DNA of 64,000 nucleotides from Candidatus Gastranaerophilales bacterium (lineage in GTDB: Bacteria > Cyanobacteriota > Vampirovibrionia > Gastranaerophilales > Gastranaerophilaceae). Below are positions 27,908 through 34,416 of the stretch, piece by piece (position 1 is the stretch's first letter; each line of letters starts with the position of its first letter). Under the pieces are notes generated by a model. The model ran no database searches and was not told the DNA's origin. It saw only the letters and a program-made list of their open reading frames with translations. A program made the position numbers and the translations under genes. The stretch is from positions 1 through 64,000 of the forward strand of contig CALVAP010000004.1 of the NCBI GenBank assembly GCA_944325625.1, in the 5' to 3' direction.

Positions 27908-27994
27908 GGAGAGGTGTCCGAGTGGTTTAAGGTGCAAACCTGGAACGTTTGTGTGGGGGCAACTCCACCGCGGGTTCGAATCCCGCCTTCTCCG
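27908..27994 (+). tRNA. tRNA-Ser(GGA)
   Basis: This is a class II tRNA: acceptor GGAGAGG pairs with CTTCTCC (one G-U pair), the anticodon stem is CAAAC/GTTTG with loop CTGGAAC giving GGA, a long variable arm follows, the T-arm contains GGGTTCGAATCC, and the discriminator is G as in serine tRNAs. CCA is not encoded. The first 28 bases are identical to tRNA-Ser(CGA) at 32268. Confidence 0.95.
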
Positions 27995-28028: not shown

Positions 28029-28061
28029 ATTTCTGGAAAAGGCTCTCGAATACAATTCCAA

Positions 28062-28124
28062 GACCGGTTTGATGTGTACAGATACTTTGATTATTTTGGT
28101 ATGGTCCAGTTGTGTAAAGAATTA
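28062..28124 (+). repeat. Dispersed repeat B, copy 1
   Basis: A 63-base segment aligns without gaps to 32452-32514 (52 of 63 identical by eye), including ATTATTTTGGTAT and CAGTTGTG. Each copy lies downstream of a tRNA-Ser gene. The segment contains an extended -10-like TGGTATGGT. Here it points into the 3' end of the specificity-subunit gene, where a promoter makes little sense, so this copy is probably a rearrangement scar. Confidence 0.65.
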
Positions 28125-28137
28125 AAAAATAACAAAT

Positions 28138-29277
28138 TTACTTATTGCATACATCTTTTGTAGTTTTGATAATTTTGTCTTTCCAGTCAACTACATTTTT
28201 AATTACTAATTTTTTAATAGCTTTAATATATATATTCATGAATTTATAATCTATTTCGCCTTGATAGTCAATCGGAAGTTTTATTTTTAAATCAGGTAAA
28301 CTATCAGTAGCATTAACCAAATATTCTGTAAAAAATATTTGTAATTTATTAATTGTGGTAGTAAAGAATAACCTTTTTTCTTCAGACATTTCTCCGGATT
28401 TAAAAGTTAAAGCTTTTACTCGAGTACCTATATGGAAATTTTTGTCTTGTGTTGTTGCATAAAAAACGCCTCTATCTGCAAGTGCTAAAGTGTTTTTTGC
28501 ATTAAACAATCTCTTATTTTTTTGCTGTTTTACATAAATAGATATTCCGTTATCACTATTTTTATGGCTTACTAATGGAATATTTCCTTTTTCACTATTA
28601 CCAATAATAAAATCTTTACCTGTTGCAATATCAAATATATCTTTTATTATGAAGTCTTTAAATTTTATTTTTTTATTATTGATTAAATCAATAGCTTTTT
28701 GTTCTTCTTCTGTTAGTTCATAATTATCAAGTCCGCTAGCTTGTAAATAACGCTCAAGTTCGCGGATTCGCTCCTGCTCAAGTTCGCGGATGTAATTTTC
28801 CATAAAATTAAAATCTATTTTATTTTCTGAAGATATGGGTAACTTTACAAACATTTCACTAGCAACAGCCCTATTGAATTTATTGGCATAATCAAAACGA
28901 TTATTTGCACTTTTTCTAAACAATGAAACAAAATATAACAAAGTTTTTTCATTCCATAATTTTTTATCATAGGGGTATAATCCTTGAACATGAGAATATC
29001 CAACAAAATTATCTGGCTGATAAAATATTGCTTCTGAAGTTGTTGTATCACTATATGTTATAATCCCGCCTTTTTCAGTGGGAGCAAGATTTACATAACC
29101 TGTAATGCCATTATTTACACTTGAATTTGTAACAACAGGAGTATTTCCTTTTGTTTTAAATAAATCTACATTTGTCATTTTATAGGAGCTTGTCGGATGA
29201 ATATCAAACAAATCTCCAACTTCAAAATTATTCCATTTGCCCCCGTTTGCTTCGAAATCAGCTATCAACTTTTTCAA
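28138..29277 (-). CDS. Restriction-modification specificity (S) subunit
   Basis: The 379 residues comprise two similar halves, each with a target-recognition region (first NFEVGDLFDIHPTSSYK, second FKDFIIKDIFDIATGKDF), each ending in a helical segment (PISSENKIDFNFMENYI and PIDYQGEIDYKFMNIYI), joined by a coiled helix RELEQERIRELERYL at about 158-172. This is the HsdS/BcgI-B architecture recognising a bipartite DNA site. It lies 11 bp downstream of the methylase gene. The joining helix is encoded by a 24-bp near-duplication, a place where slippage would alter the spacing between the two half-sites. It is complete and probably functional. Confidence 0.85.
   Translation of the reverse strand: MKKLIADFEANGGKWNNFEVGDLFDIHPTSSYKMTNVDLFKTKGNTPVVTNSSVNNGITGYVNLAPTEKGGIITYSDTTTSEAIFYQPDNFVGYSHVQGLYPYDKKLWNEKTLLYFVSLFRKSANNRFDYANKFNRAVASEMFVKLPISSENKIDFNFMENYIRELEQERIRELERYLQASGLDNYELTEEEQKAIDLINNKKIKFKDFIIKDIFDIATGKDFIIGNSEKGNIPLVSHKNSDNGISIYVKQQKNKRLFNAKNTLALADRGVFYATTQDKNFHIGTRVKALTFKSGEMSEEKRLFFTTTINKLQIFFTEYLVNATDSLPDLKIKLPIDYQGEIDYKFMNIYIKAIKKLVIKNVVDWKDKIIKTTKDVCNK
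28752..28791. repeat. 24-bp near-tandem repeat inside the S-subunit spacer helix
   Basis: GCTCAAGTTCGCGGAT occurs at 28752-28767 and again at 28776-28791, a period of 24 bp (8 codons), encoding RELEQE- and RELERY-type units of the central helix. Such repeats change DNA-site spacer length in some type I S subunits. Confidence 0.6.
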
Positions 29278-29288
29278 ACGAGGGCTTT

Positions 29289-31115
29289 CTAAAAATTTTC
29301 GTTAGTTTCCCCTTTTAGTATTGTCGAAACTTTCCAGCTCAAGTAATCTGCTACAGTCTTTTTAAAATCCTGTTCAGTTGGAGTTGTATCTATTTTTCTA
29401 TGCTGATTATAGGTCCAATCATTACCATTTAATGTTATAGTATCCTCAATTGTACAATTATCAAAATAGTGTGTTTCTTTTTTGTTACCCAATACTATAT
29501 CAATAATTTCTTTATAACGTTCATCAGCATGATCTGTATTTTTTAAATTCACATTGGCACTTGATTTTTTACGATTTTGTCTTGTATACCCATCATTTGA
29601 AAAATCAACAAATTTTACTAATTTATTTTTATCATGAGGAGTACCAACATCAAAAACATATATAGCAGTTTGAACCCCAGCTTTTCCACAGAATATATCT
29701 GACATGTGTATACTAGCAATAAGAGTATTATTTTTTAATATTCTTTCTGTATATGGTAAACCATTACCACTCCCAGCATTTTCTTGTATTAGAACTGCAG
29801 CTTTTCCTTTTTTCATTCTGTTTAATGCTTTTTCTACAAAAACAAAACCTTTACCATCAGCAGAATAGGGAGGATTTAATAGAAATACGTCAGCTGGGAA
29901 AGGTTCACCGTTATGATCACCCATTTCATAAGTACCATTATATTCAGTTAACGAATTTTTATGTATAATGTTGGAAGAACCATCACCCATAAGAATCATA
30001 TTTAATACAGCTAACATATATATATCAGGGAGCTTTTCAACACCTAATAATTGATAAGCTTTAATGTGCATTATTTTTTGATTTCTAAGATTTGGGTCTG
30101 CAATTGTATTTGCTTTTTTAATCATTTCTTTCATCGCTGAAATCAAAAAACCAGCTGATCCCGTTGCATAATCCCATACATAAGAGTTTTCATTTACCTG
30201 ACATAATTTTGTCATTAACTCACACACATAACGAGGGGTCAAAACTACGTCATTTTGACTGCCATCAGGAACTTTGACCCAAGCGTTCAATACATTAAAC
30301 AATCTTCCTGTAAAATCTATATGATATTTGGGATTAAAGAATGGCAAAATTTCATCTTTTACTTTTTTATATACTTTTTTAAGCTTGCTTTCATCATTTT
30401 CAACTTCGTATAGTTTTGAATATATAAACACTAATCCTAAGACTTCCTTTATCATTTCTCTTTTTTGCTCAGGAAGTTTTTTTTCTGCTAAAAAAGATTC
30501 TATTTTATTAAGTATTACCATTCCATCATGAGTTTTAGCTCCGGCTTCACCTTTTAAATCCGAAAGCTCAAGGGGTGCGACTATACATTTACCATCTTTT
30601 TCTACACCTAAACCAGCCATAATCAAACCCGAAATCAACTTAACTCTATAATCTTCCGAAATACTATGTACCTCTTGCATTTCTTGGTTAAGGTTTTTTA
30701 AATTAATTTCAATTTGATTTTCAAGGTTGGATGTTTGTTTTTCTTTTTCTTCTTCCGTTAAATTAATAGAATCAATTTTATCTGTTAACTCATCCAAATT
30801 TTTCTGAGCTAAAAAACCAAAATCAGTATAATTATCTATTAACTTTGCAATACCTAAGTTCTTATCACTCAAATAATATGCTTTCAATTTAGTTTTTACT
30901 TCTTTATTTTCTAGCCAACCAGTAATCCCAATAGCAATAACTTCCTCGTATGTATCAGTATAATTTAATATAGCATTTGAATAGTGTACAGCACCATTAA
31001 CTGCATATTTTTGAATATTAGTATAGTTAGGCTGACCTGCTTTATCTTGATTTAAAACGAAATTATCTTCATCTAGTTTTTCTAGGTCGTGTTGCTTCCC
31101 TTTTACTTCTACCAT
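29289..31115 (-). CDS. N6-adenine DNA methyltransferase of a BcgI-like R-M system (nuclease part frameshifted)
   Basis: The 608-residue frame comprises a remnant of the nuclease (MVEVKGK, the ExK half of a PD-(D/E)xK site), a helical linker at about 60-270, and a gamma-class N6-adenine methylase: SAM motif WDYATGSAGFLISAMKE at about 318-334, catalytic NPPYSADGKG at about 413-422. The upstream half of the nuclease, with the PD residues, lies in another frame at 31157-31330. The full-length fused nuclease-methylase plus a separate S subunit is the BcgI (type IIB) plan. The methylase may still be made from the internal ATG, which would give a modification-only enzyme with the S subunit. A sequencing error is the main alternative. 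Confidence 0.8.
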   Translation of the reverse strand: MVEVKGKQHDLEKLDEDNFVLNQDKAGQPNYTNIQKYAVNGAVHYSNAILNYTDTYEEVIAIGITGWLENKEVKTKLKAYYLSDKNLGIAKLIDNYTDFGFLAQKNLDELTDKIDSINLTEEEKEKQTSNLENQIEINLKNLNQEMQEVHSISEDYRVKLISGLIMAGLGVEKDGKCIVAPLELSDLKGEAGAKTHDGMVILNKIESFLAEKKLPEQKREMIKEVLGLVFIYSKLYEVENDESKLKKVYKKVKDEILPFFNPKYHIDFTGRLFNVLNAWVKVPDGSQNDVVLTPRYVCELMTKLCQVNENSYVWDYATGSAGFLISAMKEMIKKANTIADPNLRNQKIMHIKAYQLLGVEKLPDIYMLAVLNMILMGDGSSNIIHKNSLTEYNGTYEMGDHNGEPFPADVFLLNPPYSADGKGFVFVEKALNRMKKGKAAVLIQENAGSGNGLPYTERILKNNTLIASIHMSDIFCGKAGVQTAIYVFDVGTPHDKNKLVKFVDFSNDGYTRQNRKKSSANVNLKNTDHADERYKEIIDIVLGNKKETHYFDNCTIEDTITLNGNDWTYNQHRKIDTTPTEQDFKKTVADYLSWKVSTILKGETNENF

Positions 31116-31156
31116 TACAGGGATTTTACGTCCTGTTTTTGTTTGAAGTAATAACT

Positions 31157-31330
31157 TTATATCCGGATAATTGTCCCTTTCCCTCCAGCTTTACTTGGTG
31201 CTTTTTTTAAAGCCTCTTCTATTTCTGTATTAATACTATCCGTTTTTGTATAATATTTTATATTTAAATCTTTAAGCCAGTTTTTTGCTATATCTTCAAC
31301 TTGTTCTTCGATACTTTTATTATTTGCCAT
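31157..31330 (-). pseudogene. Frameshifted N-terminal fragment of the R-M nuclease domain
   Basis: The frame starts MANNKSIEEQVEDIAKNWLK, runs 57 codons to LKKAPSKAGGKGTIIRI and stops. In the alternative frame, open from about 31190, the sequence continues NYPDIKLLLQTKTGRKIPVM directly into the methylase ORF and restores the PD-(x)n-ExK nuclease motif. One missing base in the stretch GGGAAAGGGAC (about 31176-31186) explains the break. There is no classic -1 slippery heptamer at the overlap, so a mutation is more likely than programmed frameshifting. The fragment is too short to act alone. Confidence 0.7.
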
Positions 31331-32267: not shown

Positions 32268-32354
32268 GGAGAGGTGTCCGAGTGGTTTAAGGTGCGGATC
32301 TCGAAAGTCCGTGAGGGTTCACCCCCTCCGTGGGTTCGAATCCCACCCTCTCCG
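32268..32354 (+). tRNA. tRNA-Ser(CGA)
   Basis: This is a class II tRNA: acceptor GGAGAGG with CCTCTCC, anticodon loop CTCGAAA giving CGA, a long GC-rich variable arm, T-arm GGGTTCGAATCC and discriminator G. CCA follows at 32355-32357 and is encoded, unlike the other tRNAs here. A TTGATG/TAATAG promoter-like pair with 17-bp spacing lies at 32226-32254. The downstream 32358-32613 stretch holds repeat B copy 2 and no gene. Confidence 0.95.
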
Positions 32355-32451
32355 CCATCTCCCCTTTATAGCTATGGAGCTTATCAATATTCACACCTTT
32401 GCATGAATTTTTGTAACCGTATATAAACCAATATTAGCGCTGTAATTTCAC

Positions 32452-32514
32452 GACCGGATTGATTTATACGAATATTTTAATTATTTTGGTATAGTACAGT
32501 TGTGCTAAGAATTA
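32452..32514 (+). repeat. Dispersed repeat B, copy 2, with extended -10 promoter-like core
   Basis: This is the partner of 28062-28124. It contains TTTTGGTATAGT, an extended -10 (TGnTATAGT), and lies about 100 bp upstream of the 32614 gene, which it could transcribe. Directly before it, ACCAATATTAGCGC (about 32428-32441) is repeated exactly after repeat A copy 2 (34681-34694), linking the two repeat families. Confidence 0.6.
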
Positions 32515-32613
32515 GTTTCGTCTGTATTTATAAACAAATGTTATACAAAAAGATACAAGTCTTATTTTATTGTATAATATAATTCGAGTTAGTACCGCTT
32601 GGAGGTTATTCTC

Positions 32614-34416
32614 ATGTACAAATTATTGATTAGATTTTTAATATCAATTCTTTTTATTTTCATTATTCCAGTTGTTTATGCTAAAGATATTCCTGTTATA
32701 GGCACTCCTTCATTTGATAAAATAAATGAGGCATATCTTGTATTTCAAAAAACAGATGTTAAATCTAATGATAAGGAATTCTACTGGTATTTAAAAGAAC
32801 TAGCGCATCAAGCAGATATTTTAAATAAATATAACGCTCAAGATATACAAAATTGGCATAATAAATCTTCAAAAGAAAAAATAAAGCTATCAAATAAGTT
32901 AAAAGAATTGGGGCTAAAAATAGCTGAATGTGAAGGCAATGGTTTTTATACGGTTGATTATCAATCTGTTTATTTAAAAAACAAAGAATTAATATCTCCA
33001 GAAATGAATTTTTGGCTTGAATACAATATGAACAATGATAAATTGGTTGATGATTTTGCATTACTTGTTGATATTGATAAAATTAGAACAAATTTAGTAT
33101 TGTTAGAAGATTTTATTAAGAAAAATCCAAAATTTGTAGCGAAATCCGAAGCTATAAAGGAGTTAAATTATTTAGCAAAAATTTATGTATTTGATTTTGA
33201 TAATACACCTGCTTTTGATAGAGAAACAGCCATTCTAAATGTCAAGTATAAAAATTCATATGAAAAATTTTTAAAAGAAAATACAAAATCAAAATTTTAT
33301 AAAGATATTTCTGATTACTACCAACAAATAAAAGAAAACAATTACAAAAAAGTTGATAGTCCTAATATCAAGCCCCAGTACGTAAAAAATGACCTTATAA
33401 AGAATTTATTTAATTCAACTATGATAGAATATCAAATTGCAAATGCAAAAAAGCAAACATTCCAAGATGCTATTTATTATATAAATTACGTTTTTGAAGA
33501 TTTTGACAAAATAAATGATGAAAAAATTAATAGTGAACTAAAAAATATAAAAAATTCTTCAGATGCAATGAAAGAAGATGAACAATTTATATTTGAAAGC
33601 TATGATAAATTTCTGAAAAATAAAAATAATATGGCTCAAAATTATGAATTGTATCAAGCTTTAAAGACATATTCGAAACAATACAATGAAATTTTAGAAG
33701 GACTTAACAATGTTTATAGCACTGCTTACGAACAATACAAAAAAACTCTAGAAAAAAATTATAATAATATATTCTCAAAAGTAAAACCAAATTCATATAA
33801 TGCGGAAAAAATAAACTTAATAAAAAGAGCAATGTATGAGCTTAATTTATATGAATTTGATCAATTTAAAAAAGATATTGTTTCTTACGAAAATAAAAAT
33901 AATGCTAATTTATTATTTCAGGCGAGATTATTAAAAAATAATTTTGATACAAAAGCTCAAGAAATTTACAAATATAGTTATGAATATGAAAAAAATAACA
34001 CCTTAAACTTTATGAAAAAAAATAACAGAAAAAAAGATGGTGGACCAATCGCTGGATTTGTTTATGTTGCTTCAAATAATAATCCATCGCCTGATTATAT
34101 TTATAATTATTATGATTCCAGTTTTCCGTTATATGTATTTCAAACATTAAATAACGGAATATTAGTAAGAGGTGATTATAGCTTAACTGGGTATTATGCA
34201 AGTACTGCGTCTAATGTATTTATTCAAACATCTAAAAAGTATGTGGTAAATCAAAGACTAAAAGCTAATACTTATTATGTATTTACAGGAATTAAAAAAT
34301 ACAATACTTTGTTGGGCGCACAAAATGCTGTTTGGCAATTCAAAGAAATAAGTCAACAAGAAGCTAAAAATAATTTTTCGACAAAGGATAAGTTATACTT
34401 TTATAGGAATTTTTAA
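32614..34416 (+). CDS. Large secreted helical protein of unknown function, 600 aa
   Basis: A signal peptide (MYKLLIRFLISILFIFIIPV, cleavage near VYAKD) is supported by GGAGG 8 bases before the ATG. The remainder is Lys/Asn/Glu-rich and mostly helical, with long stretches of coiled-coil type (residues about 250-470, ENNYKKVDS, NKNNMAQNYELYQALKTYSK). It ends in a small beta-rich domain at about 475-600 (GPIAGFVYVASNNNPSPDYI, GVLVRGDYSLTG-type turn). No cysteines are used for disulfides and I recognise no family. It is flanked by repeats B and A and is more AT-rich than the core genes, consistent with accessory DNA. Confidence 0.6.
   Translation: MYKLLIRFLISILFIFIIPVVYAKDIPVIGTPSFDKINEAYLVFQKTDVKSNDKEFYWYLKELAHQADILNKYNAQDIQNWHNKSSKEKIKLSNKLKELGLKIAECEGNGFYTVDYQSVYLKNKELISPEMNFWLEYNMNNDKLVDDFALLVDIDKIRTNLVLLEDFIKKNPKFVAKSEAIKELNYLAKIYVFDFDNTPAFDRETAILNVKYKNSYEKFLKENTKSKFYKDISDYYQQIKENNYKKVDSPNIKPQYVKNDLIKNLFNSTMIEYQIANAKKQTFQDAIYYINYVFEDFDKINDEKINSELKNIKNSSDAMKEDEQFIFESYDKFLKNKNNMAQNYELYQALKTYSKQYNEILEGLNNVYSTAYEQYKKTLEKNYNNIFSKVKPNSYNAEKINLIKRAMYELNLYEFDQFKKDIVSYENKNNANLLFQARLLKNNFDTKAQEIYKYSYEYEKNNTLNFMKKNNRKKDGGPIAGFVYVASNNNPSPDYIYNYYDSSFPLYVFQTLNNGILVRGDYSLTGYYASTASNVFIQTSKKYVVNQRLKANTYYVFTGIKKYNTLLGAQNAVWQFKEISQQEAKNNFSTKDKLYFYRNF

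What the first reader, a model, noticed from the sequence alone, without database searches (positions are those of the whole stretch)
29289..31330. Restriction nuclease split from its methylase by one missing base
The PD half of the PD-(D/E)xK nuclease is in one frame (ending at 31157) and the ExK half plus the methylase in another. The conserved nuclease stretch NYPDI becomes readable again if one base is restored near 31180. The methylase and S subunit stay intact. The result would be protection without cutting, which may reflect relaxed selection or a switchable OFF state.
Basis: partly seen in the sequence, partly recalled or inferred. Interest (0 to 1): 0.5.

Follow-up and report, generated by a model that had tools for sequence, protein, structure and literature searches.

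The report
Broken two-sided DNA-cutting defence gene
In this genome the cutting-and-marking enzyme of a known kind of anti-phage defence system is split by a one-base shift inside its cutting domain, while the relatives examined have it in one piece, so this is most likely a young knock-out (or a sequencing error) rather than a new kind of switch.

Summary
The frame break is real in this assembly. The gene is a BcgI/BsaXI-like Type IIB enzyme (nuclease and methylase in one chain) with an intact S gene beside it. Frame A gives 57 residues (31330-31157). Frame B is open from 31190 to 29289. The shift must lie within 31190-31160. Of 35 relatives examined, 35 read through this motif in one frame.

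NYPD lies in the same frame as VEVKGK and the methylase; frame A holds only the N-terminal helices. The first canonical start in frame B (31115) lies after the catalytic D, so no product can carry a complete nuclease.

Two proposed meanings fail. The interval has no run longer than three bases and the A7 tract is outside it, so there is no slippage switch. Seventy codons around the break differ from the closest relative at 16 codons silently and at 2 with a residue change, so relaxed selection was not long-standing. The lesion is recent, or an assembly error; 85 kb of other aligned coding sequence showed no frame break. "Protection without cutting" is possible but unproven.

In passing: the module sits beside a tRNA gene and a dispersed repeat that borders other defence genes in related genomes.

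The parts
31157..31330 (-). Frame A: N-terminal 57 codons of the RM gene (two helices of the nuclease domain, residue E36), ending at a TAA
   Evidence: matches residues 1-52 of the intact relative L002 at 96%; PADLOC REase_MTase_IIG 9.3e-05 for this piece alone
31160..31190 (-). Interval that must contain the frame shift (between the last upstream stop of frame B and the stop of frame A); no run longer than 3 bases
29289..31190 (-). Frame B: open stretch of 633 codons with NYPD, VEVKGK, helical linker and N6-adenine methylase (motifs DYATGSAGF and NPPY)
   Evidence: Pfam N6_Mtase 1.3e-17; PADLOC REase_MTase_IIG 1.1e-160
29289..31115 (-). ORF from the first canonical start of frame B (608 aa); as a product it would begin at residue 73 of the intact protein, after the catalytic D57
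31116..31172 (-). 19 codons NYPDIKLLLQTKTGRKIPV: lie after the shift and before the first canonical start, so are in no expected product of this allele, yet 5 silent and 0 residue-changing differences from L002
31202..31208 (-). A7 tract (reads T7 on +), also present in L002; lies upstream of the frame-B stop at 31193-31191, so slippage here cannot join the frames
28138..29277 (-). S (specificity) subunit, 379 aa, two target-recognition halves, uninterrupted, TTG start 11 bases after the RM stop
   Evidence: Pfam Methylase_S 9.3e-26; PADLOC Specificity_II 6.2e-22
27908..27994 (+). tRNA-Ser (GGA) bordering the module on the S side
28054..28124 (+). One-core copy of a dispersed repeat between the tRNA and the S gene
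32268..32357 (+). tRNA-Ser (CGA) beyond the O-acetyltransferase gene
32444..32514 (+). Second copy of the repeat (82% to the first)

Best explanation
This is a horizontally acquired Type IIB (BcgI/BsaXI-like) restriction-modification module, one nuclease-methylase chain plus one S subunit. Its nuclease domain has recently been knocked out by a one-base frame shift between residues about 48 and 57. Shown: the break, its narrow interval, the intact relatives, and the constraint on the broken codons. Inferred: translation from 31330 ends after 57 residues, so no complete nuclease is made and the system cannot cut. Also inferred: methylation survives only if ribosomes start again at 31115, giving a chain that lacks the first 72 residues and keeps half a nuclease domain in front of the methylase. 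I put methylase-only at about 40% and loss of both activities at about 60%, given that the break is real. Because cutter and protector are one chain, losing both is harmless to the cell, so nothing needs to preserve the methylase. Such a single lesion is ordinary decay of an accessory defence gene.
For: Two-frame match to L002. 35 of 35 relatives in one frame across the motif; the 14 of genome contigs are 667-703 aa in one ORF. No tract in the interval. Sixteen silent against 2 residue-changing codon differences in the 70 codons around the break, dN/dS 0.036 for the N-terminal 51 codons against 0.056 for the rest, which suggests a young loss. Low background of frame breaks: 0 in 84 alignments (85,194 bases) with G008 proteins and 0 in 21 (18,510 bases) with G001 proteins; the method found the RM break itself in 2 of 2 control queries. 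Horizontal acquisition: RM 92% identical to L002 where a host protein (LptA-like by eye) is 43%. Type IIB architecture: the nuclease domain alone matches BsaXI residues 23-191 best (Z 7.8); the whole model matches BsaXI over residues 1-615 (Z 22.5). Other family members are broken elsewhere: L070 near residues 281 and 532, L123 near 556, L124 between 522 and 560, and L125 matches only over residues 5-122.
Against: One genome only; no reads and no second strain of the species. The same low divergence of the broken codons is what an assembly error would give. Whether the 608-aa product is made, folds or methylates is untested. The fold match of the nuclease domain is only moderate, and Foldseek alone gave no match at E <= 0.001.
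Confidence: 0.62

Rival explanations
1. The shift is a sequencing or assembly error and the gene is intact in the organism.
For: The nuclease codons, including 19 that no expected product of this allele would translate, show only silent changes or nearly so, as in an intact gene; runs of three bases lie in the interval; only one assembly is available.
Against: No other frame change in about 85 kb of aligned coding sequence of the same genome, a 95% upper bound of about 0.07 expected frame errors for a gene of this length; no long homopolymer at the site.
Confidence: 0.25
2. A contingency locus: a repeat tract switches the nuclease on and off.
For: BcgI-like systems of Helicobacter pylori have a poly-G tract of 13-14 in the S gene and were reported inactive in the strains studied (PMC3936762, section 27 read).
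Against: The 31-base interval has no run over 3 bases, and the A7 at 31202-31208 is separated from it by a frame-B stop. In 28138-31330 the scan found one T8, three T7, one C5 and two (AT)5, none of them in the interval. A7 is equally present in the intact L002.
Confidence: 0.03
3. A programmed ribosomal or transcriptional frame shift makes the full-length enzyme from the two frames.
For: Both frames are kept open and constrained up to the junction.
Against: By inspection of the sequence there is no X XXY YYZ slippery heptamer in frame in the interval and no run long enough for transcriptional slippage; 0 of 35 relatives use two frames here.
Confidence: 0.03
4. The module has become a stable solitary methylase: nuclease lost and methylation selected for.
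For: Methylase motifs and S subunit intact; an in-frame ATG is available at 31115.
Against: No mark of long nuclease loss; poor initiation context at 31115; none of the 35 relatives has the same form.
Confidence: 0.07

Closest known systems
BsaXI (Type IIB, RM + S, cryo-EM 8w0p/8w2p/8w2q; PMC11997821, abstract and passages read)
   Same: N-terminal PD-(D/E)xK domain, helical connector and N6-adenine methylase in one chain, with a separate two-TRD S subunit; best fold match of the nuclease domain and a match over most of the whole chain
   Different: Only 14-19% identical in the structural alignments; the BsaXI chain is over 900 residues with a C-terminal paddle; it is intact and active, whereas this copy is split
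BcgI (archetype Type IIB; PMC3874165 and PMC4027205, passages read) and phage-borne bcgIA/bcgIB genes
   Same: Gene order RM then S; the annotated bcgIA of phage phiSabovST1 aligns to L002 over 97% at 26% identity
   Different: BcgI itself was not compared; recognition site unknown here
[quoted passage not shown]
   Same: BcgI-like systems that are off in the sequenced strains because of frame problems
   Different: There a poly-G tract in the S gene allows phase variation; here the lesion is in the nuclease domain with no tract
L002, Candidatus Gastranaerophilales MAG E08__bin323 (CALUYC010000035.1)
   Same: Closest relative found: 90% DNA identity over 2,097 bases, 92-94% protein identity
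   Different: One continuous 680-aa gene, beside tRNA-Met, with a different S subunit (42% overall)

Membership tests
Type IIB / BcgI-like RM system | Nuclease and methylase in one polypeptide | tested here: met
   Met in L002 (680 aa, one frame) and the other 13 relatives of genome contigs; in the window the same chain is encoded in two frames, so the window copy is a broken member
Type IIB / BcgI-like RM system | Separate S subunit with two target-recognition domains next to the RM gene | tested here: met
   Pfam Methylase_S, two stretches; PADLOC Specificity_II
Type IIB / BcgI-like RM system | Cuts on both sides of a bipartite site; 2 RM : 1 S complex | not testable with these tools
   needs purified protein
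PD-(D/E)xK nuclease | Fold of the N-terminal domain | tested here: inconclusive
   Favourable: AlphaFold2 of L002 residues 1-190 (pLDDT 92.9); VIA-align top rows are the BsaXI nuclease domain (Z 7.8 and 7.2) and Hjc-type resolvases among the next (Z 5.0-6.5). But Z below 8 is only moderate and Foldseek alone gave no match with E <= 0.001
PD-(D/E)xK nuclease | Catalytic D ... ExK in one reading frame with a start codon | tested here: not met
   D57, E75 and K77 are invariant in the 17 relatives of alignment A2 and present in frame B of the window, but no canonical start precedes D57
N6-adenine DNA methylase | SAM-binding motif and NPPY catalytic motif | tested here: met
   Pfam N6_Mtase 1.3e-17; NPPY and the key residues of DYATGSAGF are invariant columns in all 15 rows, the window included
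Phase-variable (contingency) RM gene | Simple repeat tract whose length change joins or breaks the frame | tested here: not met
Programmed frame-shift gene | Conserved two-frame arrangement in relatives | tested here: not met
   0 of 35

The most novel reading that the evidence does not exclude
The module is cargo of a family of tRNA- and tmRNA-targeting transposable elements of gut relatives of Cyanobacteria. Their Mu-like ends, a repeat of about 245 bp with three ~25-base cores that mostly starts in TG, are left behind as scars that mark a defence-gene hotspot. The split nuclease would then be a defence cassette that lost its cutter after landing.
Probability: 0.15. Interest if true: 0.5.

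Novelty: new member of a known kind. Interest (0 to 1): 0.15.

Why it matters
As a finding it is ordinary: defence genes in accessory DNA are often broken. It adds a clean case in which a Type IIB enzyme, with cutter and protector in one chain, can lose its cutter through one shift without leaving a dangerous unprotected nuclease. The neighbourhood matters more: if the tRNA-linked repeat is a transposon end, it gives a handle on how restriction systems move between these uncultured gut bacteria.

Tried and rejected
Phase variation: rejected on the repeat content of the interval and the frame-B stop. Programmed frame shift: rejected on relatives and lack of a slippery site by inspection. Break shared by a clade: not found. 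Recurrent break at one site: the four other broken or partial members differ. A possible inverted copy of the repeat at about 31590 (by eye) did not reach the scan threshold and was dropped. Rfam gave nothing for the repeat. Sequence searches of the PDB found only Type I methylases, not BsaXI; the BsaXI link rests on fold comparison. VIA-align on the full chain lists mostly methylases, so the nuclease domain was folded alone. The first frame-shift survey had only 13 and 12 alignments, 0 frame changes, and was replaced, hits under 35% identity, or covering under 60% of the query without a second piece, were dropped, and the method may miss shifts near gene ends. The 35 loci hold places of one genome seen twice or nearly so (L003/L049, L009/L050) and near-identical copies (L005/L007, L011/L012/L015, L062/L064/L069). 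Left out were the distant hits L019-L035 and L054-L057, second copies of the same places (L052, L053), and plasmid and phage hits that were not fetched (of H1-H34 only H5, H22, H30 and H34 were fetched; H30 was not in the count). Literature (search listings only): the organism group with restriction-modification gave 0 papers, with transposon 2 papers that by title are off topic; Mu-like ends with defence islands gave 4 papers, none on this by title; other listings were.

Full report
What is there. The window is the first 64 kb of contig C4 (337 kb) of a 1.70-Mb, 17-contig genome, 99.7% complete. No call names its taxon. Its relatives and shared repeats point to the gut cyanobacterial relatives (Gastranaerophilales); that is an inference. 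On the minus strand, 31330 to 28138, lie two genes that together make a Type IIB-like restriction-modification module: a nuclease-methylase gene and an S gene. PADLOC calls the first REase_MTase_IIG (1.1e-160) and the second Specificity_II (6.2e-22); Pfam gives N6_Mtase and Methylase_S.

The break. Read from the ATG at 31330 the frame closes at 31159-31157 after 57 codons. The rest of the protein is open in another frame from 31190 to 29289, 633 codons. A relative, L002, has the whole protein, 680 aa, in one frame; it matches the window in two colinear pieces in different frames, residues 1-52 at 96% and 40-680 at 92%. The last stop of frame B before the open stretch is at 31193-31191, so any event that joins the frames lies within 31190-31160. 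Frame B has no ATG, GTG or TTG between its stop and 31115. The first product it could give begins at residue 73 of the L002 numbering, after D57. D57, E75 and K77 are invariant in the 17 relatives of alignment A2.

Is it a nuclease of the expected kind? The intact domain (L002 residues 1-190) was modelled at pLDDT 92.9. Against solved structures its best matches by VIA-align are the nuclease domain of BsaXI (Z 7.8, 138 residues, BsaXI 23-191) and then Hjc-type resolvases (Z 6.5 and below), with some rows of other kinds among them. Foldseek alone gave no match at E <= 0.001. The whole chain (pLDDT 82.6) matches BsaXI over residues 1-615 (Z 22.5, 504 residues, rmsd 17.4) and many Type I methylases over the methylase part. 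In BsaXI alanine at E73, D90, E105 or K107 abolishes cutting (PMC11997821, passages read). That D57, E75 and K77 here are the counterparts of D90, E105 and K107 is an inference from motif order. A product without D57 should not cut.

Relatives. Of the 35 loci checked, 35 read from residue 37 to 77 in one frame; they are 14 loci of genome contigs, 5 of the unnamed whole genomes, 13 viral contigs and 3 plasmid or phage records, with some redundancy. In a sample of 382 genomes of the class, 10 have a match at E <= 1e-40, the window's genome among them, and none of the other nine has a stop inside the match. Four family members are broken or partial in other ways: L070 near residues 281 and 532, L123 near 556, L124 between 522 and 560, L125 matching only residues 5-122. 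So decay recurs in this family, and the window's site is not a shared one.

How old is it? Against L002 the N-terminal 51 codons have 11 codons with silent and 2 with residue-changing differences. The 19 codons NYPDIKLLLQTKTGRKIPV, which no expected product of the present allele translates, have 5 and 0. dN/dS is 0.036 for the N-terminal part and 0.056 for the rest. This suggests that the nuclease has been under the same constraint as the methylase for most of the time since the split from L002. Either the lesion is young or it is an error. Lasting relaxed selection is not supported.

Error or mutation? Proteins of G008 and G001 aligned to 264 kb of C4 and 6 kb each of C9 and C11 showed 0 frame changes in 84 alignments (85,194 bases) and 0 in 21 (18,510 bases); the control queries L002 and L003 showed the RM break in 2 of 2. 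The 95% upper bound is about 0.07 frame errors expected in a gene of this length. This favours a real lesion but cannot settle it. No second strain and no reads were available.

Switch? The longest run in the 31-base interval is three bases. The A7 at 31202-31208 lies before the frame-B stop, so a length change there gives a stop, not a join; L002 has the same A7 and is intact. In 28138-31330 the scan for long runs found one T8, three T7, one C5 and two (AT)5, none in the interval. The known phase-variable BcgI-like systems of H. pylori use a poly-G of 13-14 in the S gene (PMC3936762, section 27 read). Nothing comparable is present. No slippery heptamer was seen in frame by inspection.

What the allele does. 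Shown: the S gene is intact and the methylase motifs are intact. Inferred: no cutting. Methylation needs a start at 31115; the only Shine-Dalgarno-like AGGA seen is 15 bases upstream and lies in a short inverted repeat. The remaining half-domain in front of the methylase may or may not be tolerated. [quoted passage not shown] I rate methylase-only at 40% and null for both at 60%, given a real lesion.

Where it came from. The RM gene is 90% identical in DNA to L002 over 2,097 bases and 92% in protein, while a host protein of L002 (LptA-like by eye) is only 43% identical to that of the window's genome. In the DNA search L002 beyond the module matched G000 only at a tRNA-Met gene, a nearby fragment of it and the dispersed repeat; that search scored 40 of 146 candidates. 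The module has therefore very likely moved between distant relatives. The S subunit shows domain shuffling: window half 1 is closest to L002 half 2 (68%), and window half 2 to L003 half 2 (65%).

Side lead. The module lies between tRNA-Ser(GGA) and, beyond an O-acetyltransferase, tRNA-Ser(CGA). Each tRNA is followed by a copy of a 71-base repeat, 82% alike. In G000 one further copy passes E 1e-10, next to tmRNA at a contig end. In related genomes (12 of 59 with a match, the window's genome included) a longer form of about 245 bp has three copies of a 25-base core; 7 of the 8 listed copies begin with TG, two of the eight being the same place. In 15 of the 28 stretches examined a tRNA or tmRNA gene lies within 400 bases of a copy (16 copies), and in all 16 the copy is downstream of that gene in the same orientation; in the other 13 stretches there is none that close, among them L202, where a tRNA lies 1.5 kb away on the other side. 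In 9 of the 20 stretches the copy ends within 160 bases of a contig end. BcgI-like modules of G001, G330, L002, L003 and G272 lie beside it, though the copies at L003 and G272 are weak; these loci were found through the RM gene. Among first genes on the far side of copies found by the repeat itself, 4 of 12 scanned were defence genes: a BsuBI/PstI-type system, a GmrSD-type enzyme, a NACHT-type ATPase and an S subunit. Seven of the 12 had no PADLOC match, and one, a radical-SAM protein by eye, matched the viperin models at 6.6e-14, which I do not count. In G019 a protein with a Mu-transposase DNA-binding domain (HTH_Tnp_Mu_2, 1.9e-4) starts 115 bases from a strong copy; in G001 a similar one (1e-4) lies beside a weak copy. 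This looks like the end of a Mu-like element; it is a lead, not a result.

Verdict. Observation partly confirmed, interpretation partly supported, an ordinary broken member of a known kind. Interest 0.15.

Noticed in passing
window 28054-28124 and 32444-32514; L104 1498-1740; L200 6000-6241; L204 4847-5087; G001 contig C15 7070-7313: Dispersed repeat (71 bp with one core, about 245 bp with three ~25-base cores) downstream of tRNA and tmRNA genes in related genomes (16 of 16 copies that have such a gene within 400 bases); it borders BcgI-like modules and in 4 of 12 scanned cases other defence genes; Mu-type transposase domains lie beside copies in G019 and G001.
   Followed up: partly
window 28138-29277 against L002 2171-3307 and L003 5785-6978: S subunit built of halves that match halves of other S subunits, one of them in a different position (window half 1 to L002 half 2, 68%; window half 2 to L003 half 2, 65%): shuffling of target-recognition domains.
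   Followed up: partly
L070, L123, L124, L125: Other members of the same RM family are frame-broken or partial at different places, so decay of this gene recurs.
   Followed up: partly
L061, L062, L063, L064, L069 (viral contigs), just upstream of the RM match: The open frame upstream of the RM match in these relatives encodes tandem heptapeptide units ATSDQRP (a 21-base repeat), so the N-terminus may vary in length.
   Followed up: no
G000 contig C11 1-127 and C16 72-95: Contigs of the window's own genome begin within (C11) or near a weak match of (C16) the dispersed repeat, which suggests that the assembly breaks at this element.
   Followed up: partly
window 32599-34416: 605-aa ORF downstream of tRNA-Ser(CGA) and the second repeat with no Pfam or NCBIfam match at E <= 0.1.
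   Followed up: no
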